Notes: generated by a model not told the origin, from the letters alone. A stretch of DNA of 57,498 bases from an uncultured Alphaproteobacteria bacterium (GCA_944390685.1 CALXQL010000003.1:1-57498); one strand, 5' to 3'. Shown: positions 212 to 48,976, numbered from the stretch's first letter. A program made the numbers and translations.

Positions 212-1432
212 ATGAAACTAAATAAAAAATTGGGATTTATTGCATCGTTAATTGTTGCAATGATGCCAAAGGGGAGTAAAGCCGATTTGTTTTTATGTGC
301 CGCTTGCCCAATAGGAACATACGGAAAAGGTGATAGTTTAAATTGCACCCCTTGTCCCGTTGGACAATATCAAGATATAGTTGGACAAGGCTCCTGTAAA
401 CCATGCCCAGCGGGTAAATATCAAGATAAAACAGGACAAAGTTCATGTAAAACTTGTAATGGTATTGTAAATTCATCTAGAACAGGTTGTGTGGATTTTA
501 ATAATTTAACATTAGATAATTTCACACAAATTGCAAATGTAAATCCCGAAATGTGTGCATATACCTGCTCAACTGGAACACTTCAACCAGGATGGTATTT
601 GATTAGATTGAGAGGTGGAAAAGGAAGACTAAGTTATAGGCATGTTGGCTTTACGGGAAAGGAAATATCGCAAGGTCAAAATGGAGCAAATTTTAATTAT
701 GTATTTTATCTTCCATCAAGTGCATCATATAAACTATGTCTAGGATGTTCTGGCACTATATTTAATGAAATTCCAAGAGAAGATAAAGTTGGAGGAGGAG
801 GTGGTGGTGGTTCTTGGTTAAAATTAAATTTTGGAGGTAAAGATTATTACTTTGTGGCTGGTGGGGGTGCTGGTGCGTATGCACCAGATGATTATCGATT
901 GGGTGGTCCTGGTGGTGGGGGTGGTATAGGTGCTGGAGGTGGTGGAGGGCTTGCAGATGGAGACCCTCAATCTGCATCTTCTCCAGGATTAGGGAGTGGA
1001 ACTTATAGGGGAGGAAATGGTGCACGCGTTACTTCGTATTTTTCAGCTCCTGCACATCCCGGTGAAGGATTAAATGTAGGTAATGATGGAGGTAAGATAA
1101 AGGATTCTTCGGATGGTAGTGCTGGTGCTTCTGGTGGAGGAGGTGGTGGTAGAGGTGGTGATGGATTTGCTAGTTATTATTATAATGGAGAGAATAATTG
1201 TTCTGAAAGCTTTTATGAAAATCGTTCAGCCTCACGTGGTGGTAGTTGTGCTCCTATTACAATAAATATTATAACTGGATTTCAAACTACTGGTGTAAAG
1301 ACCGCTACTTTTGGGGGAGGATATAAACCTTGTAGTAAAACACAAATACCTGCTTCAACTTCCCACACATCAAATGTTCCAAAAATTGGTGCTTGTGGGG
1401 ATAGTTGTGCAATATTGTATAAATTGAAGTAG
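212..1432 (+). CDS. Secreted protein with ephrin-receptor-like Cys repeats and Gly-rich domain
   Basis: The 406-residue protein starts at ATG 212 behind AAAGGAG. It has a signal peptide (about residues 1-24). Three repeats of the form CxxCPxGxY...GxxSC follow (about 28-82), as in ephrin-receptor-like GCC2/GCC3 modules. A long glycine-rich region (about 195-325) has runs such as GGGGGGG and AGGGAGAY, resembling the glycine-rich extracellular domain of ALK/LTK receptors (PF12810). More paired cysteines occur near the C-terminus. I infer a disulfide-bonded extracellular or surface protein with an unknown ligand. It lies in a run of similar genes at the window edge and ends at a strong terminator. 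The domain names are by pattern only. Confidence 0.75.
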   Translation: MKLNKKLGFIASLIVAMMPKGSKADLFLCAACPIGTYGKGDSLNCTPCPVGQYQDIVGQGSCKPCPAGKYQDKTGQSSCKTCNGIVNSSRTGCVDFNNLTLDNFTQIANVNPEMCAYTCSTGTLQPGWYLIRLRGGKGRLSYRHVGFTGKEISQGQNGANFNYVFYLPSSASYKLCLGCSGTIFNEIPREDKVGGGGGGGSWLKLNFGGKDYYFVAGGGAGAYAPDDYRLGGPGGGGGIGAGGGGGLADGDPQSASSPGLGSGTYRGGNGARVTSYFSAPAHPGEGLNVGNDGGKIKDSSDGSAGASGGGGGGRGGDGFASYYYNGENNCSESFYENRSASRGGSCAPITINIITGFQTTGVKTATFGGGYKPCSKTQIPASTSHTSNVPKIGACGDSCAILYKLK

Positions 1433-8267: not shown

Positions 8268-8406
8268 TTTGGCACCTTTTATATTTATTTTACTTTATTT
8301 AAACAAATATTTTTATTTTTGTCAATAATTATTTTATAAAAATTGTGGCTTTTCTTTTTAAAATAGTATATTGTTTAATTTATAGTGAAAAATGAAAGGT
8401 GAATTT

Positions 8407-8802
8407 ATGATAAAATCTAATAAATTAAAGACTTTTATTGTTATATTTTTATTATCTTTGGTTGCTTTGTTCGTGTTTATGAATAAAAAAGCTCATGGAA
8501 ATGATAGCGTGGAGATGATTTTGTTTTATAGTCCTAGTTGTCCTCATTGTCATGATGCTATTGCTTTTTTGGATAAAATATCTCCTAAATATCCAGATTT
8601 AACAATTACAAAACATAATGTAGCAACTAAAACCGGTGTAAATTATTATATGTATTATAAAAATAAGTTGAATATTCCAGGTAATGGCGTGCCTGTTGCC
8701 GTATTTGGGGACAAATATGAATTGGGTTTTGGTGATGAGGCTACATCTGGAAAGGTGTATACCGATAATATTGAAGAATTAATCAATAATTCAAAAAAAT
8801 AG
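8407..8802 (+). CDS. Membrane-anchored thioredoxin-like protein (CPHC)
   Basis: The 131-residue protein has one N-terminal hydrophobic segment (about residues 9-25), then a small thioredoxin-like domain. This has the redox motif CPHC (C45, C48) after the strand EMILFYSPS and a conserved Pro in a GVPVAVF strand, the cis-Pro position of the fold. CPHC is the active site of DsbA-like oxidases. I infer a periplasmic, inner-membrane-anchored thiol oxidoreductase, perhaps for disulfide formation in the many cysteine-rich exported proteins of this region. I chose ATG 8407 behind AAAGGTG. It is convergent with the dipeptidase gene. Confidence 0.8.
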   Translation: MIKSNKLKTFIVIFLLSLVALFVFMNKKAHGNDSVEMILFYSPSCPHCHDAIAFLDKISPKYPDLTITKHNVATKTGVNYYMYYKNKLNIPGNGVPVAVFGDKYELGFGDEATSGKVYTDNIEELINNSKK

Positions 8803-8804
8803 TT

Positions 8805-9515
8805 TTAAGGAGTTGGATCTTCTAACTCCTCTTTTTTTACTTTACATTCAATTTTATCACATATAGTCAGTAATGGATAAGTTTTGGTATTACCTATTTT
8901 TTGATAATGCCACCATTCGTTTTTTATTCCTCTTAATCCGGCTTCTTGCATTATGGATTTTAGTAACTCTCTATTATCGCATTTATATTGCTCATGTTTT
9001 TCACATTTATAATTTTGTGAAGCCGATTGTGTAAATGCATCAACTGGGGTTGGAAATTCTAATTCTTCACCATTTGAATTGGTAAGAGCCACATCTATGG
9101 CAAGACCTTTTGAATGTAGAGAGCCATATTTATGTGGATTTGATAAAAACTTTGGCGTTGGAGATAAGTGCCACATATACATTTGTGCTTCATGGGGACG
9201 AAAACAATCATACATTTTCATCTTTAAGTTATGTTTTTTTAATAGTTTTTCTAATTTTTTTATATTTTCATATATATCAATATGGACATAGCAATCGTTA
9301 ATACCGAATTTATCATAAAATTTATGATGAAGAAAGTTATCTTCTCTATTATAAGTAAGGTGATTTATAAAATATGGCGAATCTATTTTTATAAGTGGAA
9401 AATGTTTTTCAATTATATCATTAGATGTTGTGATTTCAATTTCATTTTCTGCAAAAACTATTGTAGTTTTAAATATTAAAAAAACTAAGATATATATATA
9501 TTTTAATGCTTTCAT
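8805..9515 (-). CDS. D-alanyl-D-alanine dipeptidase (VanX/DdpX family, M15D)
   Basis: The 236-residue protein has a signal peptide (about 1-22), so it should act in the periplasm. The zinc-dipeptidase signature is complete: SLHSKGLAID gives H134 and D141, and NEWWH gives catalytic E200 and the third zinc ligand H203; R106 in DCFRP matches the conserved arginine near the active site. The family cleaves D-Ala-D-Ala. Here there are no vanH/vanA partners, so recycling of peptidoglycan-derived D-Ala-D-Ala is more likely than glycopeptide resistance. Four extra cysteines (C75, C104, C171, C179) may form disulfides. Confidence 0.9.
   Translation of the reverse strand: MKALKYIYILVFLIFKTTIVFAENEIEITTSNDIIEKHFPLIKIDSPYFINHLTYNREDNFLHHKFYDKFGINDCYVHIDIYENIKKLEKLLKKHNLKMKMYDCFRPHEAQMYMWHLSPTPKFLSNPHKYGSLHSKGLAIDVALTNSNGEELEFPTPVDAFTQSASQNYKCEKHEQYKCDNRELLKSIMQEAGLRGIKNEWWHYQKIGNTKTYPLLTICDKIECKVKKEELEDPTP
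8809..8838 (+). terminator. Intrinsic terminator between convergent genes
   Basis: GGAGTTGGA (8809-8817) and TCTAACTCC (8821-8829) form a nine-base stem with one G-U and a TCT loop, followed by seven T. It ends the thioredoxin-like gene and lies inside the last codons of the dipeptidase gene. Confidence 0.8.
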
Positions 9516-9531
9516 TTATTATTTTTTCCTA

Positions 9532-9560
9532 TTGTAAAAATTTATTTTTTGTAATATAAT
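9532..9560 (+). promoter_or_regulatory. Sigma70-type promoter of the 2-hydroxyacid dehydrogenase gene
   Basis: The -35 TTGTAA (9532-9537) and -10 TATAAT (9555-9560) are separated by 17 bases, about 35 bases before the ATG at 9595. Confidence 0.7.
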
Positions 9561-9594
9561 TTATTAGTTTTAAATTAAACTAATGGAGGTTAAA

Positions 9595-10608
9595 ATGCAA
9601 ATAGTTTTTTGTGATGTTGATAAAATGACTTCTGAGTTTTTAAATGGTGTTAAAAAACCTGATGGCGTTGAATTTATCACTTTTTCTAAAAGTTTAAATG
9701 AAATAAGTGATGCAGAGTTAAGTCCTTATTATAATGCTGAAATAATTTCAACTTTTGTATATTCAAGACTTTCTCGTGAACTTCTTTCCAAATTTAAAAA
9801 TTTGAAAATGATTTCTACTCGTTCTTCCGGATTTAATAATGTGGATTTGGATTATTGCCGTGAAATGGGTATAAAGGTTGTAAATGTTCTTGGATATGGG
9901 GAAATAACCGTTGCAGAGTTTGCCGTAGGTGTGCTTTTAAATCTTACCCGTAAAATTAGAACCGCTCAAAGAAAACTTAAACATGGTATAGTAAATGTGG
10001 CAGAAGATTTAGGTTATGATTTATATGGTAAAACCGTTGGTGTAATTGGAACCGGTGCAATTGGTAGACATTTTGCTCGTCTTGTAAAAGCTTTTGGATG
10101 TAAAGTCCTTGCATATGATTTATATCCTAATCAAATGCTTGTTGATGAAGAAACTTGTACTTATACCGATTTGGACACTATATTTGAACAAGCCGATATA
10201 ATAGGGCTTAATTGTCCTTCTACCAAAGAAAATTATCATATGATAAATTCCGATACTATCAATAAAATGAAAGATGGTGTATTCATCATCAATACCGCTC
10301 GTGGTGAATTGATTGATACTGCTGCTCTTTATGATGCATTAGTATCAGGAAAAGTTGGTGGCGCTGGATTAGATGTATTGGATTATGAAGATGTGCTTCT
10401 TAAAAATGATGTTAACCTTGTAAAAAATAAGGATAAGGATTTTGTTTTCTATTCACTTGTTAATCAAAAACTTGTTCAACTTGAAAATGCGATTATTACC
10501 CCTCATATTGCATTTAATTCTATTGAGGCAAATTTGCGCATTTTAAATACAAGTATGCAAAATGTATTTGATTTCATTGATGGAAAACCAGTTAAATCTG
10601 TCGTTTAA
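9595..10608 (+). CDS. D-isomer-specific 2-hydroxyacid dehydrogenase (D-lactate dehydrogenase-like)
   Basis: The 337-residue cytoplasmic NAD(P)-dependent enzyme interconverts a 2-oxoacid and a D-2-hydroxyacid. It has the Rossmann motif GVIGTGAIG near residue 147. The catalytic Arg is in NTARGELID. The catalytic His is in TPHIAFNS, with the family's VAEFAVGVLLNLTRKI helix before the dinucleotide domain. The order and the long loop before the final ITPH motif are like fermentative D-lactate dehydrogenases (LdhA), which would fit a fermentative gut lifestyle, but the substrate is not proven. I chose ATG 9595 because GGAGG lies just upstream. Confidence 0.88.
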   Translation: MQIVFCDVDKMTSEFLNGVKKPDGVEFITFSKSLNEISDAELSPYYNAEIISTFVYSRLSRELLSKFKNLKMISTRSSGFNNVDLDYCREMGIKVVNVLGYGEITVAEFAVGVLLNLTRKIRTAQRKLKHGIVNVAEDLGYDLYGKTVGVIGTGAIGRHFARLVKAFGCKVLAYDLYPNQMLVDEETCTYTDLDTIFEQADIIGLNCPSTKENYHMINSDTINKMKDGVFIINTARGELIDTAALYDALVSGKVGGAGLDVLDYEDVLLKNDVNLVKNKDKDFVFYSLVNQKLVQLENAIITPHIAFNSIEANLRILNTSMQNVFDFIDGKPVKSVV

Positions 10609-10627
10609 TATAATAATTTCATTATAA

Positions 10628-10660
10628 AAAAATTGAGGAAGTTTTTACTTCCTCTTTTTT
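10628..10660. terminator. Bidirectional intrinsic terminator
   Basis: GAGGAAGT (10635-10642) and ACTTCCTC (10647-10654) form an eight-base stem with a TTTT loop, with A6 on the left and T6 on the right. It serves the dehydrogenase gene and the end of the VirB6-like operon. Confidence 0.88.
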
Positions 10661-13056
10661 GTTTCTTCCTCAGCACGAGATGTTTGTGCACGAATATGAT
10701 TTCTTTTATAATCCTTTATTTCCTTTGTAATTAAACTTTCAAACATATCTTCATCGTATTCATCCATTTCATCAAATGTCTTTTGAAGTTTTTTCAAATC
10801 TCTTTTTAATTTTGAAACCTTTAAATATGATAAATCGTTTGGATCTTTTTTTAATTCCTCATCTATTTGATTTTGTAAAAATTTTAAACGTTCCCTTTTA
10901 AGTATAATGAATAAATCCTTTGCCGTTATGTCATTTCGTTTATATTTATTTAGGTTTTCCCTAAATAAAATATATTGTTTCATTTCCTCTAAACGTTTTT
11001 GTTCCTTATAATTATTTGATTTTACTTCCGCTTCAATTTTATCAAGAAGTTGACGAGTTTTTGGTGATGGTTGTTCTCCTTTGAAAATAACTCTATTTAA
11101 CTTTTGGCGTTGAGTTTTGGATATGGTTTTATCATTTCTTATATAATCTTCCAATTCCTTATTATATAAATCTTGTTTTATATCCGCAAATGGTGTTGAA
11201 TCCTCTTTTTTATTTGGAGTTGCAAGATTTATTTCATTTACAACATCATTGATTTTTGGATTTTTCTTTATAGTATTTAATACTTCTACATCATCACTTA
11301 AAATTGCATTATGAAGTAGGGATTGTTCCTCTTTATCCAGTTTATTATAATTTTCGTATTTTGATAAATTTTCATTTAAGAAACTATCTTGCTTTTGTCT
11401 TACAGCAGAATATTTTTTACTACGAACTTCATAATCTTTTTTTAATTCATCAAATGGTTGAACTTTATAATTAGTATTATTTGCAAATGATGTATTTGAT
11501 AAATCATTTCTATTTTCGTAAAGTTTTATTGCATCTTCAACTGGTATATCATAGATAGTTAATGGATCATCTTTATTTGGTTTTGCATTTTTCTTTTTAT
11601 CATCTTTATTGCTTGGTTGAGAAAGAGTTTGATATACTTCACGTTTTACTCCTCCTTTTATATATTTTATTGTTGAAATTGTTATTTTTTTAAGTCCATT
11701 TAACACAACATCTTCACTTATACCACTTTTCACAACGGAACTGAATTTATCCGCGGTTTTAACACTTTCCGCAATTAAAGTATAACAAATTAAACATACG
11801 AATAATGTGCTTATTATTATTGTTGGATTAAATAGTATTGTAAATAATACTTGGTTTTTTGTGCTTAATAAATTAAATCCATCTAAAAAAGTTGATGCTG
11901 TCAGTATTTTACCATTACCGGAAAGGCTACTTAATAAATCCGTCAATGTTATATCCATGTTTCCAGCATTAAAATTTATTGTTAACAATTCGTTTAATAA
12001 ATAGGTGGTTATAGTCATACTTACCGATAAAAAACCAACTCTAAATGTTGCCTTTACTACATTAAAAAATAGTGGCGTGGATAATTTACTTCTTGTATTT
12101 TTAAATGTCCAGGCCCCTATTGTAATAGGCATCATCACTCCAACCATAGCCAATTTTACTACTACATCTAATATAGTTATAAGATAAGTAAAAAGTATAT
12201 ATAAAAATCCTACTGAAATACATAAGCCTATAAAAAATGTTAAGACATTTGCAATGTATGTCAAAAATAACCATACCTTTAATAAAAACATCAATATATT
12301 ATATAATATTCCCCAGGAACCAAGTGCCGTTTGTAAGGCGGTTTCCAAACTTTGAACAAGTGTAGAATTATACACTAATTCACTTACCTTAAATTCACCC
12401 ATTGCTATTGCTGAACGAGCCATGATTTTCATACCTAAGTCGGTGCCCGCCATATAGGTATTGCCATATTCTCTTGTTATACAAAGTAGATTGATAAGTG
12501 TGTTTTCCTCTATATTCATTTCATCATTTGTAAGTGATGTTTTTTTGAAATTGTTAAGGGCTTGAACCGAATAATCTTTTAATTTTATATCATCACAAGA
12601 AAAATTTTTTATACGATTATTGGCTAATTTTAACATTTCCGTATCATTTCTTGCACTTTCCAATACCCATTTTGCAAATGATGGTCCGGCATTCATTATT
12701 GGTTCTATTGAATATTTGAAAATTTCCCTTGCTGGAAGTGATAAAAGTGAAATTACAAATGTATATGTAAATAATTTCACAAAAACATCTTTGAAAAGTG
12801 TATTCACATCTGTTTTTTGAGGCTTTATAATATTAGTCCATATATACCATATAAACCAAAATGCCATTGTTAACCATAATAAATTTAATACTATTGGCAC
12901 AAATACATCATAAAGTTTATATACAAAGTTAAATACATATATATATATTCCCTCCAATATATCACATTGCCAACATGATGGAAGGGGAGCATTTGAAGTT
13001 TGAGCAAATGATGGTGTGGATATTAACATAAATAATATAGCAAAAAATTTTATCAT
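10645..13056 (-). CDS. VirB6/TrbL-like T4SS membrane protein, paralogue 5 of 5 (long C-terminal tail)
   Basis: The 803-residue protein has a signal peptide (about 1-18) and a periplasmic CWQC motif (C28, C31). Several membrane segments follow up to about residue 430, including the VirB6/TrbL-like core near 235-340. The last 350 residues are highly charged (Lys/Glu-rich, predicted helical) and probably cytoplasmic. A later cysteine in a LLCI context matches the other four paralogues. VirB6 proteins form the inner-membrane channel of type IV secretion systems. It is last in the operon and overlaps the previous gene by ATGA. Rickettsial VirB6 paralogues also have large extra domains. Confidence 0.75.
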   Translation of the reverse strand: MIKFFAILFMLISTPSFAQTSNAPLPSCWQCDILEGIYIYVFNFVYKLYDVFVPIVLNLLWLTMAFWFIWYIWTNIIKPQKTDVNTLFKDVFVKLFTYTFVISLLSLPAREIFKYSIEPIMNAGPSFAKWVLESARNDTEMLKLANNRIKNFSCDDIKLKDYSVQALNNFKKTSLTNDEMNIEENTLINLLCITREYGNTYMAGTDLGMKIMARSAIAMGEFKVSELVYNSTLVQSLETALQTALGSWGILYNILMFLLKVWLFLTYIANVLTFFIGLCISVGFLYILFTYLITILDVVVKLAMVGVMMPITIGAWTFKNTRSKLSTPLFFNVVKATFRVGFLSVSMTITTYLLNELLTINFNAGNMDITLTDLLSSLSGNGKILTASTFLDGFNLLSTKNQVLFTILFNPTIIISTLFVCLICYTLIAESVKTADKFSSVVKSGISEDVVLNGLKKITISTIKYIKGGVKREVYQTLSQPSNKDDKKKNAKPNKDDPLTIYDIPVEDAIKLYENRNDLSNTSFANNTNYKVQPFDELKKDYEVRSKKYSAVRQKQDSFLNENLSKYENYNKLDKEEQSLLHNAILSDDVEVLNTIKKNPKINDVVNEINLATPNKKEDSTPFADIKQDLYNKELEDYIRNDKTISKTQRQKLNRVIFKGEQPSPKTRQLLDKIEAEVKSNNYKEQKRLEEMKQYILFRENLNKYKRNDITAKDLFIILKRERLKFLQNQIDEELKKDPNDLSYLKVSKLKRDLKKLQKTFDEMDEYDEDMFESLITKEIKDYKRNHIRAQTSRAEEETKKRK

Positions 13057-14564
13057 TGATTATCCTCCGCCATATCTTCATCAAGTGATTGCGCACTATT
13101 TTTTATATCTTCTAAACTTGCTTTTTTAGATGTGTTAATTGTATTTTTTAAAAGCCCCAATTCCTCCCTTGATACGGAAAATAACCATGCAAAACTTGTT
13201 TTAATTAAACTTAATATTGCCCCACCAACATCCATCATATAACCACCTACTAAACCGCTATATGTTTTTAAATTACCCATTATCATAAGGCTTAATAAAC
13301 CCAATGAAAATATTGGAAAGAAGCTTCCTCCCATATCTCCTATACTTGGAAGATTGAAATCTATTCCTATTTTTGATAAGCATGTTTTTATTTCATTCAC
13401 ATTTCCGTTTGCCATTTGGAAACACTCTGCGAATCCTTCGTTTTTCATGATATTTGCACTTTGACTGGACACCATATTTGAATATATAAAATCCGGAAAT
13501 AGATATGTAAAATTATCAAGCGGTGCCGGATAATACATATCTCCTATGAATATAAATGATGAATAGATTATTCCTAAAAATATGCAATACATTATTATAT
13601 AAAATGCCATATGAAATAATGATGTTAATCCGGTTGAGGAAAATGATTTTGTTTCATCGTATGCATAACCTGCAATCATAACCGGTGTAAGTGCTATCAA
13701 AATACCTATTGTAAATATTATATTTACCAATGTAAAAGGTATAAATATATACATTAAAAAGAATATGGTTGTGATTGCCATTCCACCTATTATATCCAAT
13801 AATGAAGTTGGATTTTTGTTATTGAAAAAGTTTTTAAGTGAAAAGTCTATCATATTTGCACCCGCCGTAGTTGCACTTAAAAATACAACATTTACTGAAT
13901 TAGTAAGGCATAGTAAATCCCTTTTTAATTGTGGAGAAAGTATACCATCAACTTCGCTTTCCGGATAGGTTAATTTTTCACATATTGGTGATTTGATTAT
14001 TTCGGTTCCAACCCCTACACCCATTTCTAATATAGGTATTGCTGTATTTTCAAATATCGTATTTGCCATTGATTTTAATCGTGATGGGGTGGAATAACCT
14101 ATGGCAACTCCTATAATTGCTATTATAAATAATTTTTTTGTTAGTTCGTATAATATTTCCTTAAAATCACTTTCTTGTTCATTTTTTATATAGCTATATA
14201 CCTTTGTTAATATCCATATAGCAAGTCCCATAACTACCAATGTCCATACTATATCTGATATGAAAACAAATATTTTCAATCCAACAACACTCATTAAATC
14301 AAAAAGACTTGCAAATGCACCACATACCCAACACCCTTTAAAATTAGTAGCGGAAAACATTCCGTTTGTTGCGGGAACTCCCGTCATATTACTATACCAC
14401 TCATCAAATGTTGTGCCAATTGTCCAATCTCCACGAATTGCAAAAATTGCCATTCCAACAAATATCACAAGTGAGAAAAATCCAGATAATAAAAATATTT
14501 TAAATGGAGCAAGAAAAAACTTTCTCATCGCGCTATCTTTTGATTTAAAAATACTACTTAACAT
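13053..14564 (-). CDS. VirB6/TrbL-like T4SS membrane protein, paralogue 4 of 5
   Basis: The 503-residue protein has an N-terminal membrane anchor (about 22-43), then a short periplasmic stretch ending in CWVCG (C78, C81), then more transmembrane segments. The segment after the CxxC aligns by eye with the other paralogues (hydrophobic helix, charged loop, hydrophobic helix, STPSR). A downstream LLCLTN cysteine is also shared. I chose ATG 14564, preceded by GAGGATAAT, rather than 14585, which would overlap the previous gene by 32 bases. The C-terminal 50 residues are charged. It should sit in the inner membrane as part of a T4SS channel. Confidence 0.72.
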   Translation of the reverse strand: MLSSIFKSKDSAMRKFFLAPFKIFLLSGFFSLVIFVGMAIFAIRGDWTIGTTFDEWYSNMTGVPATNGMFSATNFKGCWVCGAFASLFDLMSVVGLKIFVFISDIVWTLVVMGLAIWILTKVYSYIKNEQESDFKEILYELTKKLFIIAIIGVAIGYSTPSRLKSMANTIFENTAIPILEMGVGVGTEIIKSPICEKLTYPESEVDGILSPQLKRDLLCLTNSVNVVFLSATTAGANMIDFSLKNFFNNKNPTSLLDIIGGMAITTIFFLMYIFIPFTLVNIIFTIGILIALTPVMIAGYAYDETKSFSSTGLTSLFHMAFYIIMYCIFLGIIYSSFIFIGDMYYPAPLDNFTYLFPDFIYSNMVSSQSANIMKNEGFAECFQMANGNVNEIKTCLSKIGIDFNLPSIGDMGGSFFPIFSLGLLSLMIMGNLKTYSGLVGGYMMDVGGAILSLIKTSFAWLFSVSREELGLLKNTINTSKKASLEDIKNSAQSLDEDMAEDNQ

Positions 14565-16506
14565 CTTTATTATCCTCGTTTGCAAGTTTTGTAATTTTTG
14601 CGGATTTTAATTTTGCATCTTCTTCCTTTCTTTTCATTTTATCAGAAAGTAATTTTGATGTATATTTTAAATTTACAATTTCTCGTGTAATAGTTGTTGT
14701 ATAAGATACTATACTTTTTGTAAATGTCATAAATTTTCCAGCAATATTATAACTTCCTACTATTGGTTTATAGGAATTAGCTATACTTATTGCCTTACCC
14801 AATAAAAACCAACATATAAATCCAGTGTAGAATATTTCAAGTAATGTGTTAGGGGTGAAGGATAACATATATAATACCTCACCTATGATTTCTTGGTTAT
14901 CGCCAGTTGATAGAATTTCTTGAAATTTTGAAAATTCCAATCCAGATATATATCCCAATAATAATGAAATTACCGAACACATAAGTGTTAATGAAATTAT
15001 TTGGAATATAGCACTTAAAAAAGTATCAAAACTTTGTTTCACAAATTGTTTTTTATCCACTGCATATCCTACCAATATCAATGGGAATAAAAATACAACT
15101 ATTGATATCATGAAAAAACTTTCTATGAAATAAAATGGAACCATTATGTTTATATAGAAAAATATACCCATAATTAGTATGCCTATTATAATTTTTATTA
15201 CCCCTTCAAAATTAAGATTTAATAATTGATTCCAGCCATTGATAACACTATATTTACCTATATTATAATTCATATTATTAAAAGCTGAAATGCGTTCAAT
15301 TGTGCATACAATATTTTCCCTTATATCTTTTGAAAAGATAACATTGCTATCACCTATATCCTTTGATTTATATGTGCATTGAAAATTATATCCGCTTTTT
15401 TCAATATCACGTGTGGCATATTCATTATAATCAACCATGAAATCCGTAAGTGGGCGTATGGTATAATTTAAAACATTATATTTATCCCCTATGGATATAG
15501 TTAATAAAAATCCAACTATGAATACAAATACAACCTTATTGAAAAATGTTTTGATAAATCCCATGGCATCTTGTTTTTTTATCACATTATCAAAAAATAC
15601 AAATAACATCCAAAATAAAAATAATCCAACCATCAAACTTATTGAATAATATGAAAGACTATCGTAAATTGCATAACCTACTCTTGATATTGTATTAAAT
15701 GTTATTTCAAATATATGACATGAAATACAACTTTGCCCATTTTTTAAATCATATTTAAAATTTGTAAGAGGACAAGTGGAACTATTCCATGAGGCAATTT
15801 TGTCGCCATTTGATAATAAAATATTTTTGTAGCCTCCATTTATAAATGGTTTTATATCATCATTTAAAACGCCATCATCTATTGTTGATAAAACTTCTCC
15901 AAACATATTTATTATATTATTACCTAAAACACCAATTGGTCGTAATGCCTTTGGATAAGTATTTACATAGCGTTGAAAATTATTTGTGAAATTTGGGGTT
16001 AAAGTAAAACAATCAGCCAATGCAAAATATTTGAAAACTGATTTATAGGCTGTGATACCTTCCAATAAATTTAATGTAAATTTTCTACCTATCTTATAAG
16101 TAGTTAATTTTTGCATGTGGTTTTCCGCTTCATTTAAGGCAGTTTCAATTATACTTTTATCACTTTTACTATTATCTATTGGTAAATCTATAAAGTATTT
16201 GAGTAAGTATTCCGCCTTTTCCGGAGTTATGCCATATTCCCTTAATATATTTATATCTCTTACAAATAAAGGGGTTGGATAATATGATAAATATGTATTT
16301 ATATCAGTTGAAAGTAAATCCTTATATTCCTTTAAATATTTAATTTCCCAACAATAAAACTCTTTATTAGATATATTAACTTCATCATTTGTAAGTCCAT
16401 AATAGTTTGGATTTGTGCAAAGGTGTTCAGGTGTTGCAGCATATATAGAAGATGTAAATATGCCAAATAAAATCAAAAATATAATAAATATTTTACTTTG
16501 TTTCAT
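14554..16506 (-). CDS. VirB6/TrbL-like T4SS membrane protein, paralogue 3 of 5
   Basis: The 650-residue protein has a signal peptide (about 1-23), then a 230-residue periplasmic domain. The shared motif CISCHIFE follows near residue 260 and leads into the transmembrane region. The NIVCTIER cysteine is present. The C-terminus is a short charged cytoplasmic tail. The N-terminal periplasmic domain is related by eye to that of paralogue 2: both have PTPxxx, REYGITPE/RSLGITPD, and RPIGVLGNNIINMFGEV/RPIAIKGNNLINIFGDI. It overlaps the preceding gene by 14 bases. It probably forms part of the same inner-membrane complex, with an enlarged periplasmic part. Confidence 0.72.
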   Translation of the reverse strand: MKQSKIFIIFLILFGIFTSSIYAATPEHLCTNPNYYGLTNDEVNISNKEFYCWEIKYLKEYKDLLSTDINTYLSYYPTPLFVRDINILREYGITPEKAEYLLKYFIDLPIDNSKSDKSIIETALNEAENHMQKLTTYKIGRKFTLNLLEGITAYKSVFKYFALADCFTLTPNFTNNFQRYVNTYPKALRPIGVLGNNIINMFGEVLSTIDDGVLNDDIKPFINGGYKNILLSNGDKIASWNSSTCPLTNFKYDLKNGQSCISCHIFEITFNTISRVGYAIYDSLSYYSISLMVGLFLFWMLFVFFDNVIKKQDAMGFIKTFFNKVVFVFIVGFLLTISIGDKYNVLNYTIRPLTDFMVDYNEYATRDIEKSGYNFQCTYKSKDIGDSNVIFSKDIRENIVCTIERISAFNNMNYNIGKYSVINGWNQLLNLNFEGVIKIIIGILIMGIFFYINIMVPFYFIESFFMISIVVFLFPLILVGYAVDKKQFVKQSFDTFLSAIFQIISLTLMCSVISLLLGYISGLEFSKFQEILSTGDNQEIIGEVLYMLSFTPNTLLEIFYTGFICWFLLGKAISIANSYKPIVGSYNIAGKFMTFTKSIVSYTTTITREIVNLKYTSKLLSDKMKRKEEDAKLKSAKITKLANEDNKDVK

Positions 16507-18583
16507 TTGACACCTCTATTGTTTGTTCAGCTGTTTCTTCCTTTTGTTCATTTTCAGTTTCATCTTTTTTATTGGATGAGGCTTTTTTATCTTCCTTTTG
16601 TAAGGCATAATCTTTTTCTTCCCTTACAACTTTTAATTTTAATATGGATTCAAATGTTTTCTTTATATTTTTTCCCAATGTAATTGAGCCAACCGAACCG
16701 CCATAAGAACTTGCAAATCTTGATAAATTAGAATAAATATATGCCATTGCATATAGTATGAATAAAAATTGGGAAACGCTTATTATATCAGTTGGAATTG
16801 CATTTATTATTAAATCAGCATTATTTGTTGCAATTGCCTTATCCAAAATGGATAAAACACTTTGATTGCTATTGGTGAAATAAAAACTATATATTAAAAC
16901 TCTATTAAATAATGAAAATATTGCTAAACATACCATTGTTAAACCAAAACTTTTGGCCGTAGAAATTATTGAGGTAATATTAAAACCTATCCAATTAAAT
17001 GCATACCCAAATACCATAAATGGCCATAGTATTGCTATCTTTAATATATCAAGTAAGCCGTCCAATATATAAAATGATATCATAAAGTTTATTATAAAAA
17101 ATATTCCCCATATAAATAAACCAATAAAAAATCCAAGTATTTTATTTGATGATGTGAAGTTAAATAAGTTTTTCATTAATACTTTTCCCATCATCATTTG
17201 TTTTGCATTACTATTCAATGTATCGGTTAAAAAGCATACTATTGATCCCATGGTGGATTTTGAAAGGATATATCCATCTTCTATATCATTTAATTTTGTT
17301 TTATGTTGTTCCTTTACAATTGGTGGAATTATTGTTTCATCAAGTTGTTGTTGTTTTGTCATATTTATTTCATCAATCACACTTGATAAATTACATGTAG
17401 AGGGCGTATTTTCCGTTGATATAATACGACTTGATAATCCTGTAGTTAAATCAATGATTGGTTCAAATGTAAAAGAAAATAATACTCTTGGTGGTAAAAG
17501 TAATACTGCACTAACTATAAAAATAAGTCTTAATTTTTCCGCTATATCACTATAATAATTATTAAAATTAAAATCAAATGGTATTCCCTTAAAACCTTTT
17601 AAAAATGTGGTAGCAAAATAAAAACAACCAAAAAGGACAAGAAAACTTATTATTATTACACGAAAACTTTCATACATATAATTTAATAAGTATGATATTT
17701 GATTGAAAATCATGACTATATAAGGACACATAAAACATACTGAACTTTTTGCGACTTCACTTGATAAGGTTTTTGTTTTGCATTTATCCTCATTCCAATT
17801 AACATTTACGCTTTGTGATGTGGAAAAGGCTTGATTATTAAATGTAATTTTTCTTATACTTGATTTATCAAGTCCAGTTGAAATTATTGGTCCACCTATT
17901 GATGTATTATAATCAATTGTGCCTACTATATCACCAAAAATATTTATTAAATTATTACCCTTTATCGCAATTGGGCGAAGTATTACTGGCATTGATGCGA
18001 TTATTTCAAAATATGTTGGCGTTTTGGAGGTATATAAATCACTACCACTTGTAATAGGAAGTCTTTTATCCTTTATACAATTATTTCCTTTTTGATTTAA
18101 GATATTTCCCGCTTGTTCATTATAATTTTTAAAAATTGAAGTTGAAATATTAAATGAACTGGCCGGAATGATTGTAAAATCACTTCCAATTTGTGCGATG
18201 GGTATCATGGCCTTGATATAATTATCTATATCATTTTTGGTTTGTAGGGTTTTAATTGCATTTTCATCCACTGAAAAATGTTTATCAATTATATCCGGAG
18301 TTATACCCAAACTTCTTAAATAATTAAAATTTGATGATGCTTCACCATACATTTGTTGATATTGAGATAAACTAATATTTCCCAAGTTAGTTTTTTCAAG
18401 ATAGGAAATATCACTACAAAAATATTCACTGGAATATTTATTTAAAATTGGTGTGGGATTGGCAAAATATATTGATGCGGTTTTATAATCACAATTTCTT
18501 TTTGTTTGTGATAATGCCATATCCCCGTTAATTACATAAAAAAGAGGTAGTAATATCATTAAACATTTTTTTAAAAATCTCAT
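16493..18583 (-). CDS. VirB6/TrbL-like T4SS membrane protein, paralogue 2 of 5
   Basis: The 696-residue protein has a signal peptide (about 1-25) and a 250-residue periplasmic domain similar to that of paralogue 3. The motif CFMCPYIV lies near residue 280, followed by several transmembrane helices and the SIVCFLTD cysteine. The C-terminal tail is Lys/Glu-rich. ATG 18583 is preceded by GAGGATAAT and overlaps the stop of paralogue 1 by four bases, so translation is probably coupled. The shared N-terminal domain suggests that paralogues 2 and 3 arose from one duplication inside the array. Confidence 0.72.
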   Translation of the reverse strand: MRFLKKCLMILLPLFYVINGDMALSQTKRNCDYKTASIYFANPTPILNKYSSEYFCSDISYLEKTNLGNISLSQYQQMYGEASSNFNYLRSLGITPDIIDKHFSVDENAIKTLQTKNDIDNYIKAMIPIAQIGSDFTIIPASSFNISTSIFKNYNEQAGNILNQKGNNCIKDKRLPITSGSDLYTSKTPTYFEIIASMPVILRPIAIKGNNLINIFGDIVGTIDYNTSIGGPIISTGLDKSSIRKITFNNQAFSTSQSVNVNWNEDKCKTKTLSSEVAKSSVCFMCPYIVMIFNQISYLLNYMYESFRVIIISFLVLFGCFYFATTFLKGFKGIPFDFNFNNYYSDIAEKLRLIFIVSAVLLLPPRVLFSFTFEPIIDLTTGLSSRIISTENTPSTCNLSSVIDEINMTKQQQLDETIIPPIVKEQHKTKLNDIEDGYILSKSTMGSIVCFLTDTLNSNAKQMMMGKVLMKNLFNFTSSNKILGFFIGLFIWGIFFIINFMISFYILDGLLDILKIAILWPFMVFGYAFNWIGFNITSIISTAKSFGLTMVCLAIFSLFNRVLIYSFYFTNSNQSVLSILDKAIATNNADLIINAIPTDIISVSQFLFILYAMAYIYSNLSRFASSYGGSVGSITLGKNIKKTFESILKLKVVREEKDYALQKEDKKASSNKKDETENEQKEETAEQTIEVSNETK

Positions 18584-20211
18584 TTATTATCCTCTTTTTT
18601 ATTAAAAGTTTTATTAAATTTATCGGTTATGCCATGGGTTGCAGATTTTAATTTATCAAGATTGGTGGCTTTATCCGTTCTTTTTGCATAAGCAATATTT
18701 TCGCGATATAAAGATTGGCTCCATGAAATGACGGATTTTGAAAATTTCCATACACTACTTCCAAGTCCGCTTTCACTTATATTTCCCATAAACCATGATG
18801 CAAAATTATAACTTTCTTGTACTATTTTAAAGTTCAAAAGCAATGCAAAAATTATATAAAAAAAGTAAAATGGACTTGCCACTTCATTAAATGTTTCAAT
18901 ATCTCCTTCTTGCAATAATTTTAGCATATAGTTTGTAGTGGTTATATTATTTGTGCTTTCGGCGGATAGCATGCCACCCAAAACCCAATCATTTATTTCC
19001 GCACATATTATCATACCTACACACATAAATATTAAACCTATGGCAAAACCAAATAAATCACTTAGCCCCTTTTTAGCATAACTTCTTGTTTCATCAAATA
19101 CATAACATATCGCTAAAAATGGAAAGATAAGTAAAGACACGCCCATAAATAATAAATTTTCAACTATTATAAATGCAAATAACATATTAACCATAAATAA
19201 TCCAATCACCAATGCAATACCACTTAGCCCCATACGAATATCTTGATTTGTGATGAACGCTGCTATGGAAGAAATATTTGCAATTCGCCCAGCATTATTA
19301 GAAATAAATTCACCGGTTTTTTGTGTGCGTTTTGTATTTTTTGATTTATTATCCTTAATATCCTTTAAAACTTCATCTAATTTTTGTTTTAATTGTTCAG
19401 CCTTTTTACCCTTTAATTTTTTATTTTGAATAGCCTTTTGTATTTTTTCAAGCCATTTATCGGTTCCGTATTGTTCAAGATTTCTTCCTAGGAAAAAGCC
19501 ACCTACCCTTATTCCTATATTAGTAATAATCGCAAGTGATATTGGAAATATTCCATGTTCAAATAAGTTAATACCTATATCCATATAACTTTGTCTTAAA
19601 ACATTTATTTCTTTTATTAAGCAAACCATATTATTTTTTGTATTTTCGGATAGAGCATTACCTTCTTTATAAATTAAATTTGTTGATTGATTTTGACATT
19701 CAGGAGGAATTGAAAGTTGCATTTCATTTATTTTCTTTTGAATAACGGAACGACCAACCCCGCTTCCAAAATCAAGGACTATTTCATAAGTATTTGCGAA
19801 AATGTTTCTTGGCGAATTGATTATAAACAATCCTATTACAACTGTTGCAAGAAACATTTTTTTATAGATTTTTTTTAAATATCCTGGATCAAGTTTCACT
19901 TGAACCGATGGATCCAATCCAACACTTTTTATAAAAATTTTATATGTTTCGTATGCAATCCATAATGCCAAACATACCGATAATATCACAAGCGAATCAT
20001 TTTGAAATATATAAAATGTTTGATTGGCAACACGGGAAAAGGTATCATATATACTTTCAAATACACCACATACCCAACAATCCTTTAATAAAGTATATGC
20101 CCCACTTGTTATGTTATATATCATATATACAAGTATAAGCAAAGAAACTATCAATAAAGTCCATTTGCTTATCTTTGAAAATAATGGTTTATTTAAGGCA
20201 TTATCCGCCAC
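18580..20211 (-). CDS. VirB6/TrbL-like T4SS membrane protein, paralogue 1 of 5
   Basis: The 543-residue protein starts at GTG 20211 behind GAGGG. It has an N-terminal membrane segment (about 17-35), then CWVCG (C45, C48) and FESIYDTFSRV, which closely match paralogues 3 and 4. A basic, helical insert (about 245-305) interrupts the membrane region; it could be a cytoplasmic loop. The NMVCLIKE cysteine is present. The C-terminus is a charged tail. It follows the small membrane protein gene at 20225 by 13 bases and begins the run of five paralogues. Confidence 0.72.
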   Translation of the reverse strand: MADNALNKPLFSKISKWTLLIVSLLILVYMIYNITSGAYTLLKDCWVCGVFESIYDTFSRVANQTFYIFQNDSLVILSVCLALWIAYETYKIFIKSVGLDPSVQVKLDPGYLKKIYKKMFLATVVIGLFIINSPRNIFANTYEIVLDFGSGVGRSVIQKKINEMQLSIPPECQNQSTNLIYKEGNALSENTKNNMVCLIKEINVLRQSYMDIGINLFEHGIFPISLAIITNIGIRVGGFFLGRNLEQYGTDKWLEKIQKAIQNKKLKGKKAEQLKQKLDEVLKDIKDNKSKNTKRTQKTGEFISNNAGRIANISSIAAFITNQDIRMGLSGIALVIGLFMVNMLFAFIIVENLLFMGVSLLIFPFLAICYVFDETRSYAKKGLSDLFGFAIGLIFMCVGMIICAEINDWVLGGMLSAESTNNITTTNYMLKLLQEGDIETFNEVASPFYFFYIIFALLLNFKIVQESYNFASWFMGNISESGLGSSVWKFSKSVISWSQSLYRENIAYAKRTDKATNLDKLKSATHGITDKFNKTFNKKEDNK

Positions 20212-20224
20212 TTAACCGACCCTC

Positions 20225-20479
20225 TTATTTAAAAAATTTTTCTTTCATTTTTAGTATATATTTATATACCTTTAAATTTAATATTTTTGTGATAAGGTTA
20301 TTTAACATTCTATTAAACTTTATATTTTCCGGATGGGATTTTGCATATAAAATACACAAACATATTATTATTATTGCCCAAGATATTATCAAAATTAATA
20401 TTTTCAATTTTGATATTATGAAAAGCCCCAATAAAATACCTAAAACACTTAATAATAATTTCATGTTTCCAGAAAACAC
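20225..20479 (-). CDS. Small membrane protein, first gene of the VirB6-like operon
   Basis: The 84-residue protein has two adjacent hydrophobic segments (about 7-25 and 27-46) followed by a basic C-terminal half. I chose GTG 20479 because GGAGG lies six bases upstream; an internal ATG at 20464 is an alternative. The position in front of five VirB6-like genes and the two-helix topology resemble small T4SS subunits such as VirB3 or VirB2, but I see no family motif, so this is only a guess from context. Confidence 0.55.
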   Translation of the reverse strand: MFSGNMKLLLSVLGILLGLFIISKLKILILIISWAIIIICLCILYAKSHPENIKFNRMLNNLITKILNLKVYKYILKMKEKFFK

Positions 20480-20554: not shown

Positions 20555-22078
20555 ATGGCTGAAAATAATTATAATAATGAAAATCAAGATTTTATTGAGG
20601 CTTCTCATTCTTCACAAGAATGGATGCATGAATTTTTGAAATATACTTTGGTTTTTTATGATCATATTTATTCAATTTTATCTCAAAACATTGATTATTA
20701 CAAAAAAAAGGAAATGATTGGTGAAATATTTTCTTCAATAAATCAAGGACATTATTTTGATGAATTACAAAATCTTGTTAATAATTATTTAGATGGCAAG
20801 ATAAATGAAGATGATTTTCAAAAGAAATTTGAACTTTTTAGAGAACAAAATATTAATGATGCAAAATCAAGATTACAAGCTTACTTTGCTGCATTACATA
20901 AAAATGAAGAAGTAGAAAATACAAAAAAATCTTTAATGGAAATAATGCCTCATGATGATCCTAAGTCAAAGGATTTTTTTGAAAATTTTGATAATCTCAA
21001 TTCCGCTCAATTAGAAGAGGTGGTTTTGGATTTTAATAATCCTTTTAATGCTTCTTTATCCGAAGAAACTATGGAAGATTTAAAATTAGATAGAAAAACT
21101 GGGGATAAAATTAAAACCCAATATAAATACAAAGTTGAGGGTAAAATATCTTCTGGAATTAGTGAATTAGATGAATTCTTAGGTATAATTCAACCAGGGT
21201 TAAATCTTCTTCTTATAGGAGTTGGAAGAATTTTTTATGAGGGTGTGGTGGATAATGTGGAAAAATTATTTTTTAGTAATCCCGATAAAGGTATTGTTAG
21301 TTATTATGAAAACTGGGCTAAATCAAGTGAAAATATTAAAAAGGCTTTTGATTTCCTTCATAATAATAACTATTTAGATGAAAACGATAAATTTCATTAT
21401 AGGGTCAATCTTGAAAATAATGAAAATCATATCGCAACTGCATTTAATAATATGGTGGTGGATAAAATAAATCTTAATAGACAATCTCAATTAAAAAATC
21501 TCAATGATACTATTAAAAATGATTTACTTAGCAATAATCAAAATTTAACCGATGAACAAAAAAGGGCTATTATTGAAAGTAGTGACATAACTCAATCTAA
21601 AGAATTTAATTTATTGAGTGAAGACGAAAAAAATGAATATCTTGCTTTAAAAGAACAATATCAACCTTTTAAAGGTAATGCCTTTAATAAATTAAAAGAT
21701 ATGACGGAAACTACTCATGCAGTTCAAGAAATTATTAAGGATACAATTAGAAAAACTCGTGATGTAGATGATAAGGGAAATCCTATTCCAAAGGCAACTG
21801 ATAAGGGGAAAAGCGCCCTAAATTCCATTATGTATTTAGTGGATTTGTTTAATAAGGATAATGATAGTGCTTTTTATAATAAGTTTTCATCAATGATTAA
21901 TTATTATAAAAGTGAATATACTTCAACATCTTTTGGTAATTTCATTGAAGATGATTCAAATGATTATTTTGTTAAACAACAAGAAAGTGAGGAACAAGAA
22001 AAAGCAATAAAAAATTTTATTAACGCTATGGGTGGGGAAGAAAAAGTTAAAGCTATGATGGGAGGAGAATCACGATAA
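20555..22078 (+). CDS. Unrecognised soluble acidic protein, first gene of the divergent operon
   Basis: The 507-residue protein has no signal peptide and no clear membrane segment. It is rich in Asn, Asp, Glu and Lys and looks mostly helical. One more hydrophobic stretch (LDEFLGIIQPGLNLLLIGVG, about 205-225) breaks the pattern. The C-terminus has Gly/Met-rich motifs (MGGEEKVKAMMGGES). I know no family for it. It is divergent from the VirB6-like array and heads a compact five-gene unit (spacing 2, -1, 1 and 5 bases). A T4SS-linked cytoplasmic component or effector is one possibility, from context only. ATG 20555 follows AAAGGA. Confidence 0.6.
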   Translation: MAENNYNNENQDFIEASHSSQEWMHEFLKYTLVFYDHIYSILSQNIDYYKKKEMIGEIFSSINQGHYFDELQNLVNNYLDGKINEDDFQKKFELFREQNINDAKSRLQAYFAALHKNEEVENTKKSLMEIMPHDDPKSKDFFENFDNLNSAQLEEVVLDFNNPFNASLSEETMEDLKLDRKTGDKIKTQYKYKVEGKISSGISELDEFLGIIQPGLNLLLIGVGRIFYEGVVDNVEKLFFSNPDKGIVSYYENWAKSSENIKKAFDFLHNNNYLDENDKFHYRVNLENNENHIATAFNNMVVDKINLNRQSQLKNLNDTIKNDLLSNNQNLTDEQKRAIIESSDITQSKEFNLLSEDEKNEYLALKEQYQPFKGNAFNKLKDMTETTHAVQEIIKDTIRKTRDVDDKGNPIPKATDKGKSALNSIMYLVDLFNKDNDSAFYNKFSSMINYYKSEYTSTSFGNFIEDDSNDYFVKQQESEEQEKAIKNFINAMGGEEKVKAMMGGESR

Positions 22079-22080
22079 TT

Positions 22081-23109
22081 ATGAAAAGACTTGCCTATAT
22101 ATCTATAATTACATCTATATTGATTTTACCAATTATTTTTTGGTTGGATTTTAATTGGAATATTTCCATTTTCTCAATTGATATAAAAAAACTTCGTTTT
22201 GCTTTTATTAAGGATAAATTTTTATTATTTGCTACATTATTTAATTTAACATTATATATATATTCTATTATCACAATTATGAAAATGAAGAATAAAAATA
22301 CAAAAAATATAACTGCAAATAATATTAAAAATACTAATAATCAATTACAAAATACTACTTCTTCATGGCATAATTTATATGATGGAAAAAGAAACAATAA
22401 TAATTTGACGACAAATAATATTCAAAAAGAAGAAGTAAATACTGAACCAATCAATAATAATAATAATAATAATAAACTTAATGTTGATATAAAACAAAAT
22501 ACAAATCAAATACAAAATCAAACCAATATAATAAATATGCCAAATATGACAAATAGTGTGTATGCAAATCAAATTGAAAATTTACTTACATCTATGGGCT
22601 ATGATGTGCTTGGGGATTTATTCATTGAAGATAATTATATAGATATCATTGCAATTGGTGAAAGTGATAGTCTTCTTCTTATTAAAATAAATTCTCAATA
22701 TGGTGAGGTGGTAGCAAATGAGGAAGAGACTCAAAAAGATCAACCTCCTATGTGGTTTTCAAATGAAAATAAATATATATCTCCTGTATTTGAAGTTAAA
22801 AATGCACATACTCAATTCGTTAAAATGATAAATGAAACTTTACCGGAAGATAATGGCGTTATGGTAAAGCCTATTGTAGTGATGACAACTTCCAATATTT
22901 CAAATAGTGATGATATGCTTAATAAATGGAAAGAATTAGGCGTGGATGTAGTGAAATTTTTTGTTAATGCCAATCTTAAAAACATCAATGATATCATTGA
23001 AAATAAAAGTGGTAAGGAGATTATGGCTAGTTATAAAAAGTATGTTAATACCTTAATTAAGTATTTCACCCAAAAGTATAAAAAAAATAGAATGAAAAAG
23101 GCGGGATAA
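22081..23109 (+). CDS. Membrane-anchored protein with a possible restriction-endonuclease-like domain
   Basis: The 342-residue protein has two N-terminal transmembrane segments (about 6-22 and 47-66). An Asn-rich linker (about 71-155) has runs such as NNNNNN. The C-terminal domain (about 160-340) begins with a helix (IENLLTSMGYDV), then strands with a conserved-looking Asp (NYIDIIAIG) and a strand ending in Lys (LLLIKIN). That order recalls the D...(D/E)xK core of Mrr/NERD-type nuclease folds, but the E before the K is missing. I call the fold possible and activity doubtful. It should be cytoplasm-facing on the inner membrane and is tightly coupled to its neighbours. Confidence 0.5.
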   Translation: MKRLAYISIITSILILPIIFWLDFNWNISIFSIDIKKLRFAFIKDKFLLFATLFNLTLYIYSIITIMKMKNKNTKNITANNIKNTNNQLQNTTSSWHNLYDGKRNNNNLTTNNIQKEEVNTEPINNNNNNNKLNVDIKQNTNQIQNQTNIINMPNMTNSVYANQIENLLTSMGYDVLGDLFIEDNYIDIIAIGESDSLLLIKINSQYGEVVANEEETQKDQPPMWFSNENKYISPVFEVKNAHTQFVKMINETLPEDNGVMVKPIVVMTTSNISNSDDMLNKWKELGVDVVKFFVNANLKNINDIIENKSGKEIMASYKKYVNTLIKYFTQKYKKNRMKKAG

Positions 23110-35280: not shown

Positions 35281-35327
35281 CTTTATAAGTAGGAAAGAAA
35301 TTTTTATAAAAAAAGGTGGAGAGTTTA

Positions 35328-37674: not shown

Positions 37675-37697
37675 TTATTTTTTAATGAGGGGGTAAA

Positions 37698-40023: not shown

Positions 40024-40034
40024 GGACAAAATAA

Positions 40035-41666: not shown

Positions 41667-41677
41667 GGAGGTTTTAA

Positions 41678-48490: not shown

Positions 48491-48976
48491 TTATATATAA
48501 TTAAATATTAATGATACTATTAAAAGTGATATTATTGCAAAGACAACCTTTTCAAATGGAAAGTGTGCATGTCCGTTATTTTTTGCTTTTAATTTTTGAT
48601 AAAATCTTTGTGATAAATCAAATGTTATTGCACCACAAATCATACTTATTAAAAAACTATCTATTCCAAAGTAAGTATTTAGTTTATATGGAACTAAAGT
48701 ATACATAGCAGGAACCAAAAGTAATGTTAATAATCCCCAAAATATATGATAGTATTTGAAAGTCCATTTTTTACTTTCCACAAATTTTATCGTGAAATAA
48801 TAAGTCATTAAAATTAAAGCTCCTATCCAGACACCAGTTGCTTGATCCGATACCCCAAGTTTTCTTGAAATACCTAAAAAAGCACCCATTGCGACAGTGC
48901 ATACTGCACATGCTGGATTTGCAAAAACAGCCTGTGGCAATAATAGTGTAAATAAAAATGTAAGTGTTTTTTTCAT
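48491..48976 (-). CDS. Small membrane protein with N-terminal CxxC
   Basis: The 161-residue protein has a signal-like N-terminus (cut near VFAN) followed at once by CAVC (about C23, C26) and TVAMGAFLGISRKLGVSD. Four hydrophobic segments come next. The CxxC at the membrane face suggests a redox or metal role, but the rest is unlike any family I can name. It is the first gene of the operon that also holds the HD phosphohydrolases and xth. ATG 48976 follows GGAGGAA. Confidence 0.6.
   Translation of the reverse strand: MKKTLTFLFTLLLPQAVFANPACAVCTVAMGAFLGISRKLGVSDQATGVWIGALILMTYYFTIKFVESKKWTFKYYHIFWGLLTLLLVPAMYTLVPYKLNTYFGIDSFLISMICGAITFDLSQRFYQKLKAKNNGHAHFPFEKVVFAIISLLIVSLIFNYI

What the first reader, a model, noticed from the sequence alone, without database searches (positions are those of the whole stretch)
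10645..20211. Five tandem VirB6-like T4SS proteins sharing a CxxC signature
Five consecutive minus-strand genes encode large polytopic proteins. Each has a CxxC (CWQC, CWVC, CISC, CFMC, CWVC) just before a hydrophobic helix that aligns across all five by eye, and each has a later single cysteine (LLCIT, LLCLT, IVCTI, IVCFL, MVCLI). Rickettsiales carry several tandem VirB6 genes (rvhB6a-e), so the number fits an alphaproteobacterial pattern. The shared cysteine signature suggests a conserved disulfide or metal site in the channel. No virB8-B10 genes are in the window.
Basis: partly seen in the sequence, partly recalled or inferred. Interest (0 to 1): 0.7.

Follow-up and report, generated by a model that had tools for sequence, protein, structure and literature searches.

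The report
Five disulfide-braced VirB6 channel genes
A small gut bacterium carries five neighbouring, diverged copies of the protein that forms the base of a type IV secretion channel, and all five keep the same two cysteine pairs, which are probably disulfide braces facing the periplasm; the array is a variant of one already known from Rickettsia.

Summary
Five overlapping minus-strand genes (10645-20211) encode diverged paralogues of VirB6. Sequence matches are weak (Pfam TrbL below its cut-off). Predicted models of two of them match R388 TrwI/VirB6 above everything else in the PDB (probability 1.00). VirB2, B3, B4, B8, B9, B10, B11 and VirD4 lie on other contigs of the same 0.93-Mb genome, in scattered islets, as Rickettsia's rvh system is arranged.

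The cysteine signature has four positions, not three: CxxC, then two later cysteines. Across 147 homologues the four are lost as two pairs, C1-C2 and C3-C4 (C3-C4: 9 of 10 independent tree contrasts agree, p = 0.004). This fits two periplasmic disulfides and not one four-cysteine metal site. The signature occurs in at least ten other alphaproteobacterial families, but not in the canonical VirB6 of R388 or R46.

The five copies of this order form one clade apart from the arrays of other families, so the amplification looks independent. M23 peptidoglycan hydrolase domains are fused into some relatives. A ring of five different VirB6 subunits (R388 VirB6 is a pentamer) is attractive but unproven. 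Named Rickettsia or Anaplasma sequences were not tested.

The parts
20225..20479 (-). Small membrane protein (84 aa, GTG start behind AGGAGG), first gene of the operon; role unknown
   Evidence: Sequence; orthologues of 87-144 aa just upstream of B6_1 in seven genomes of the same family
18580..20211 (-). B6_1: VirB6-like protein, 543 aa; CWVC at residues 45-48, C172, C197
   Evidence: TrbL 18.7 bits, NCBIfam PRK13852 (type IV secretion system protein) E 5.5e-6; alignment; residues
16493..18583 (-). B6_2: VirB6-like protein, 696 aa, N-terminal extension of about 250 aa; CFMC at 283-286, C397, C450
14554..16506 (-). B6_3: VirB6-like protein, 650 aa, N-terminal extension of about 230 aa; CISC at 260-263, C377, C401
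   Evidence: Model mc4735a656425; top PDB fold match R388 VirB6 8rt9_F, E 8.4e-4, probability 1.00
13053..14585 (-). B6_4: VirB6-like protein, 510 aa from the TTG (a later start is possible); CWVC at 85-88, C202, C226, and a further near-invariant pair C388, C402
   Evidence: Model ma0d5277e8e86; top PDB fold match 8rt9_F, E 1.6e-3, probability 1.00; TrbL 19.5 bits; A2 alignment
10645..13056 (-). B6_5: VirB6-like protein, 803 aa, charged C-terminal extension of about 370 aa; CWQC at 28-31 just behind a signal peptide-like N terminus, C154, C192
   Evidence: orthologues in two genomes of the same family carry an M23 domain
20555..22078 (+). Divergent neighbour, 507 aa, unknown; conserved beside the array in six genomes of the family
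   Evidence: no Pfam or NCBIfam family
22081..23109 (+). Divergent neighbour, 342 aa, N-terminal hydrophobic helices plus a conserved C-terminal domain; kept beside VirB6 arrays in other families too (f2, f8, f78)

Best explanation
The five genes encode extended VirB6 paralogues of a chromosomal VirB/D4-type (P-type) type IV secretion system whose other genes lie in separate islets of the same genome. Each protein enters the membrane as a helical hairpin and builds part of the periplasmic base of the central stalk or channel (inferred from the R388 fold match). On the periplasmic side each is held by two intramolecular disulfides. One is C1-C2, the CxxC at the mouth of the first hairpin helix. 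The other is C3-C4, in the loop after the second helix. These bonds would stabilise a membrane-proximal region that in R388 recruits the VirB2 pilin. The five copies have been kept as distinct genes since early in this order, so they probably do different jobs in one machine, most simply as different subunits of one VirB6 ring. Shown here: VirB6 fold, genomic system, four conserved cysteines and their pairwise loss. Inferred: disulfide chemistry, ring composition, substrates and target cell.
For: Fold: R388 TrwI/VirB6 chains hold the top places for two separate models, with probability 0.97-1.00 for the best-ranked ones against 0.38 or less for any other protein in the lists shown. Sequence: TrbL and PRK13852; profile A4 against TrwI E 2.9e-4 over the central TM region. 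System: VirB10 and VirB4; VirB2, B3 (weak), B8, B9 with SPOR, B11; VirD4 in own genome and in 109 of 114 genomes of the order. Conservation: arrays in 39 of 41 relatives; CCCC in 62 of 89 homologues of the order and in 38 of 54 homologues from other families. Pairing: of 147 homologues, 101 keep all four, 17 keep only C1-C2, 16 only C3-C4, 6 none, 6 break a pair, 1 too short to score; C3-C4 contrasts on the tree 9 agree, 0 oppose, p = 0.004; C1-C2 3.3 of 4 agree, 0 oppose; cross pairs show no clear link. Topology: M23 domains with HxxxD and HxH kept are fused N-terminally before the CxxC, and in the TM6-TM7 loop; M23 enzymes work on peptidoglycan, so these regions, and by the hairpin the C3-C4 loop, should be periplasmic. 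DsbA in 19 of 21 relatives.
Against: All single-sequence family matches lie below curated cut-offs. The AlphaFold models have mean pLDDT of only 70 and 74, their fold-match E-values are modest (8e-4 to 2e-3), and no coordinates were at hand to measure Cys-Cys distances. No DsbB of the Pfam family in 21 relatives, so the electron path from DsbA is unknown. One paralogue group of family f53 keeps C1 without C2 in all three genomes sampled, which a simple CxxC disulfide does not predict. C1-C2 has too few independent contrasts for significance.
Confidence: 0.8

Rival explanations
1. The four cysteines form one structural or redox metal site (for example zinc) in each VirB6 subunit.
For: Four invariant cysteines in all five window proteins; the CxxC...C...C layout resembles zinc sites.
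Against: The cysteines are lost as two separate pairs: 17 homologues keep only C1-C2 and 16 only C3-C4, and cross-pair contrasts are not linked. They lie on the predicted periplasmic side.
Confidence: 0.08
2. The CxxC is a redox-active site (a thiol switch or oxidoreductase) that gates the channel, rather than a structural bond.
For: CxxC is the classic thiol-redox spacing, and the middle residues vary. A thioredoxin-like CPHC protein is encoded at window 8392-8802 and lies near the array in two close relatives.
Against: No thioredoxin fold around the CxxC; it precedes a transmembrane helix. It is lost repeatedly while the protein persists. The CPHC gene was found near the array in only two of the relatives' loci.
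Confidence: 0.12
3. The array is the direct orthologue of RvhB6a-e of Rickettsia, inherited from a common ancestor, rather than a separate amplification.
For: Same copy number and same islet style of T4SS as described for Rickettsia (PMC2653234); one relative's record is labelled 'Rickettsiales bacterium'.
Against: All 89 copies of this order form one side of a split from 58 copies of eleven other families, SH-aLRT 97 with LG+G4 and 96 with C20, where one short fragment strays. True Rickettsia sequences were not in the tree. The Tlc ATP/ADP translocase was not found in this genome.
Confidence: 0.15
4. The genes are not VirB6 but unrelated polytopic membrane proteins.
For: Three of the five give no Pfam match at all.
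Against: Fold matches, shared motif G...P..I..[WY].F..T aligning with TrwI, and a companion T4SS in the genome.
Confidence: 0.03

Closest known systems
RvhB6a-e of Rickettsia (tandem extended VirB6 paralogues of the rvh T4SS)
   Same: Five large, highly diverged tandem VirB6-type genes; T4SS genes scattered in islets; extended termini (PMC2653234).
   Different: Here the array stands apart from virB3-virB4, which are on another contig. The essential Trp that the paper reports in all Rickettsia copies is not kept in the five window proteins. A search of the paper's text found no mention of CxxC. Orthology was not testable here.
VirB6-1 to -4 of Anaplasma and Ehrlichia
   Same: Co-transcribed tandem paralogues with N- or C-terminal extensions (PMC7648143). 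A paper title cited in PMC12857230 states that the four Ehrlichia VirB6 paralogues and VirB9 interact.
   Different: Four copies, adjoining virB3-virB4; two predicted lipoproteins; these are tick-borne intracellular bacteria. Cysteine pairs not compared.
TrwI/VirB6 of plasmid R388
   Same: Fold, by the top PDB matches; base of the stalk, pentameric (PMC9259494).
   Different: 342 aa, single gene, one cysteine and no CxxC; no long extensions.

Membership tests
VirB6/TrbL (PF04610) | Sequence match over the curated cut-off | tested here: not met
   Best 23.2 bits in the genome search and 19.5 in the protein scan against a cut-off of 25.9; three of five no match
VirB6/TrbL (PF04610) | VirB6 fold (R388 TrwI) | tested here: met
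   Top matches for two models, probability 1.00, TM-score by target 0.51-0.58 among the best-ranked chains
VirB6/TrbL (PF04610) | Conserved central transmembrane region with P..I....T motif | tested here: met
   hhalign of A4 with TrwI, E 2.9e-4 over 92 columns, though probability only 41%
VirB6/TrbL (PF04610) | Trp of the F..W motif after the central helices (reported essential) | tested here: not met
   Gly/Leu, Ser/Ile, Ser/Phe or Pro/Leu at that place in the five window proteins; W one residue later in some other families. The alignment there is uncertain by one residue
P-type (VirB/D4) T4SS | VirB4, VirB8, VirB9, VirB10, VirB11 and VirD4 in the genome | tested here: met
P-type (VirB/D4) T4SS | VirB5 | tested here: inconclusive
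   No PF07996 match in 21 genomes, but the controls did not ring either
Rickettsiales rvh T4SS | Tandem VirB6 copies, genome islets | tested here: met
Rickettsiales rvh T4SS | VirB6 array adjoining virB3-virB4 | tested here: not met
   virB3-virB4 on contig C8, array on C3
Rickettsiales rvh T4SS | One-to-one orthology with RvhB6a-e | not tested
   No named Rickettsia or Anaplasmataceae VirB6 was reached; a guess at such a genome gave an order of four genomes with no match

The most novel reading that the evidence does not exclude
The VirB6 ring of this lineage is a fixed hetero-pentamer: each of the five paralogues takes one of the five places that identical subunits fill in R388, and amplification to about five copies has happened more than once in Alphaproteobacteria. 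Disulfide-braced, asymmetric rings, some carrying their own peptidoglycan hydrolase, would be a new architecture for a T4SS stalk.
Probability: 0.3. Interest if true: 0.75.

Novelty: new variant of a known kind. Interest (0 to 1): 0.5.

Why it matters
Why reduced alphaproteobacteria keep four or five diverged VirB6 genes has been open since the rvh system was described. The cysteine pairs give a testable handle on topology and assembly that works across many families, in species that are not tick- or louse-borne pathogens. The apparent independent amplification to five copies in this order and in family f27, with R388 VirB6 a pentamer, makes the hetero-pentamer idea directly testable. M23 fusions suggest that some VirB6 copies also open the cell wall, the job of VirB1 elsewhere.

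Tried and rejected
A sequence-only profile search of the PDB found nothing. Plasmids: tblastn with two window copies and with one f27 copy found nothing; an f25 copy found one weak Roseibium match. An attempt to locate Anaplasmataceae through Surface_Ag_2 failed, because that profile matches genomes all across the class, and the order guessed from it holds four genomes with no match. A four-cysteine metal site was considered and set aside on the pairwise loss. The idea of one ancestral array shared with the other families sampled was set aside on the tree. No paper held in the library was found, by six searches, that describes paired cysteines or M23 fusions in VirB6; most subscription papers are not held.

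Full report
What is there. The window is contig C3 of a 929-kb, 25-contig genome that is 97.6% complete. Five minus-strand ORFs with overlapping ends run from 20211 down to 10645. They are named here in order of transcription: B6_1 (18580-20211) to B6_5 (10645-13056). A small membrane-protein gene (about 20225-20479) precedes them and is conserved in the same place in seven genomes of the family. The nearest named records are metagenome bins: isolates Mgla_MAG_18-bin_5 and Mgla_MAG_30-bin_7, E20__bin364, RUI239, RGIG8969 from a water deer rectum, and one labelled 'Rickettsiales bacterium isolate Roe453_bin7'; the titles point to animal guts, which is inference for most of them.

Identity. Pfam TrbL/VirB6 matches B6_4 and B6_1 below its cut-off (19.5 and 18.7 bits against 25.9). 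NCBIfam PRK13852 (type IV secretion system protein) matches B6_1 at E 5.5e-6, also far below its cut-off. The profile of 68 class-wide homologues aligns with R388 TrwI over 92 central columns at E 2.9e-4. The strongest evidence is fold: models of B6_4 and B6_3 (mean pLDDT 70 and 74) find R388 TrwI/VirB6 chains as the best PDB matches, with probability 1.00 for the top ones and 0.38 or less for any other protein in the lists shown.

The rest of the system. VirB10 is on contig C20 and VirB4 on C8. Around them lie VirB8, VirB9 with a C-terminal SPOR domain, VirB11, VirB2, and a weak VirB3 match next to VirB4. VirD4 is on C13, and 109 of 114 genomes of the order have it. So this is a chromosomal VirB/D4-type system in scattered islets, much as described for Rickettsia (PMC2653234), except that the VirB6 array does not adjoin virB3-virB4. 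The Tlc ATP/ADP translocase, expected in energy parasites such as Rickettsia (general knowledge), was not found in this genome.

Conservation of the array. 39 of 41 relatives hold matches, usually about five; orthologues of each copy stand in the same order in family f1, five copies also stand together in f2 and f6, while in f5 four run together and one is divergent. In an even draw of 289 genomes of the class, 26 match (22 of them outside the order), many with arrays of three to five. Of 19 such outside genomes whose loci were read, 18 (ten families) have VirB6-like proteins with the CxxC; the nineteenth is cut short at the contig end. A caution: the search profile itself contains the CxxC, so this sample favours genomes that have it.

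The cysteines. Across 89 homologues of the order 62 keep all four, and across 54 from other families 38 do. Taking 147 homologues together, with C3 and C4 scored within six residues of the aligned place: 101 keep all four, 17 keep only C1-C2, 16 only C3-C4, 6 none, six break a pair and one is too short to score. On the tree, independent contrasts for C3-C4 agree in 9 of 10 and oppose in none (p = 0.004). For C1-C2, 3.3 of 4 agree and none oppose, too few for significance. The four cross combinations show no clear link. That is what two separate disulfides predict, and not what one four-cysteine metal site predicts. Three orthologous proteins of family f53 keep C1 without C2 and remain unexplained. 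Neither R388 TrwI nor R46 TraD has a CxxC.

Side of the membrane. Hydropathy places the CxxC before the first hairpin helix and C3-C4 in the loop after the second. M23 peptidase domains, with the HxxxD and HxH motifs kept, are fused into homologues in two regions: between the N terminus and the CxxC (families f53 and f25), and in the loop between the sixth and seventh hydrophobic helices of B6_4 (f2) and B6_5 (two genomes of the window's own family). Since M23 enzymes act on peptidoglycan, these regions should be periplasmic, and a hairpin returns C3-C4 to the same side. This agrees with R388, where only two helices enter the membrane and the bulk of VirB6 stands in the periplasm (PMC9259494 and PMC12857230). 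DsbA is present in 19 of 21 relatives; a Pfam DsbB is not, so what re-oxidises DsbA is open.

History of the copies. In the tree all 89 copies of this order lie on one side of a split from 58 copies of other families: SH-aLRT 97 under LG+G4, and 96 under the C20 mixture with one short fragment misplaced. In the window's own family each of the five copies is a clade with support 99-100. So five distinct copies were fixed early in this lineage, apart from the arrays of, for example, family f27, which also has five. The alignment is remote (mean column identity 9% in A4) and the genomes are AT-rich, so this is good but not final evidence.

Mechanism. In R388, VirB6 forms a pentamer at the base of the stalk, carries VirB5, and is proposed to recruit and assemble VirB2 (PMC9259494). 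The most likely reading here is that the five paralogues build this base, braced by the two disulfides near the membrane. Whether one ring holds all five is inference. In favour: five copies in this order and in f27, early fixation, and the reported interaction of Ehrlichia VirB6 paralogues and VirB9 (title only, cited in PMC12857230). Against: family f53 and Anaplasma (PMC7648143) have four copies, and no complex was modelled. Substrate and target cell are unknown.

Verdict. It is a variant of a known kind, the tandem extended VirB6 array, with two coupled cysteine pairs that no held paper was found to describe, an apparently separate origin, and relatives that carry fused cell-wall hydrolases.

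Noticed in passing
L045:10000-12711, L044:2543-5500, L050:1938-3896, L090:6729-9818, L105:1234-5121: M23 (LytM) peptidase domains fused into tandem VirB6 proteins at two kinds of site, with catalytic motifs kept; a VirB1-like cell-wall-opening role is likely. No held paper describing such fusions was found.
   Followed up: partly
L005:7793-9328: VirB9 of this genome carries a C-terminal SPOR domain, which binds denuded peptidoglycan in other proteins.
   Followed up: no
window 22081-23109 and 20555-22078: Two genes of unknown family, divergent from the VirB6 array, stay beside it in relatives; the first also in other families of the class, so they may belong to the T4SS.
   Followed up: partly
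window 35316-42766: Type IVb pilus cluster: TcpQ-like protein, secretin, PilO, PilQ-type ATPase and T2SSF inner membrane protein, resembling the R64 thin pilus set.
   Followed up: no
window 48491-48976: 161-aa polytopic protein with an N-terminal CxxC (CAVC) and no Pfam family; a possible stand-in for the missing DsbB, untested.
   Followed up: no
window 8392-8802: Periplasmic thioredoxin-like protein with CPHC, near the array here and in two close relatives only.
   Followed up: partly
window 8805-10608: Secreted M15 D-Ala-D-Ala peptidase next to a D-2-hydroxyacid dehydrogenase, conserved downstream of the array in the genus.
   Followed up: no
window 212-1432 and 56987-57379: Cysteine-rich secreted proteins with ephrin-receptor-like repeats and a Gly-rich stretch at the contig ends; a similar protein also near the T4SS islet on C20.
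   Followed up: no
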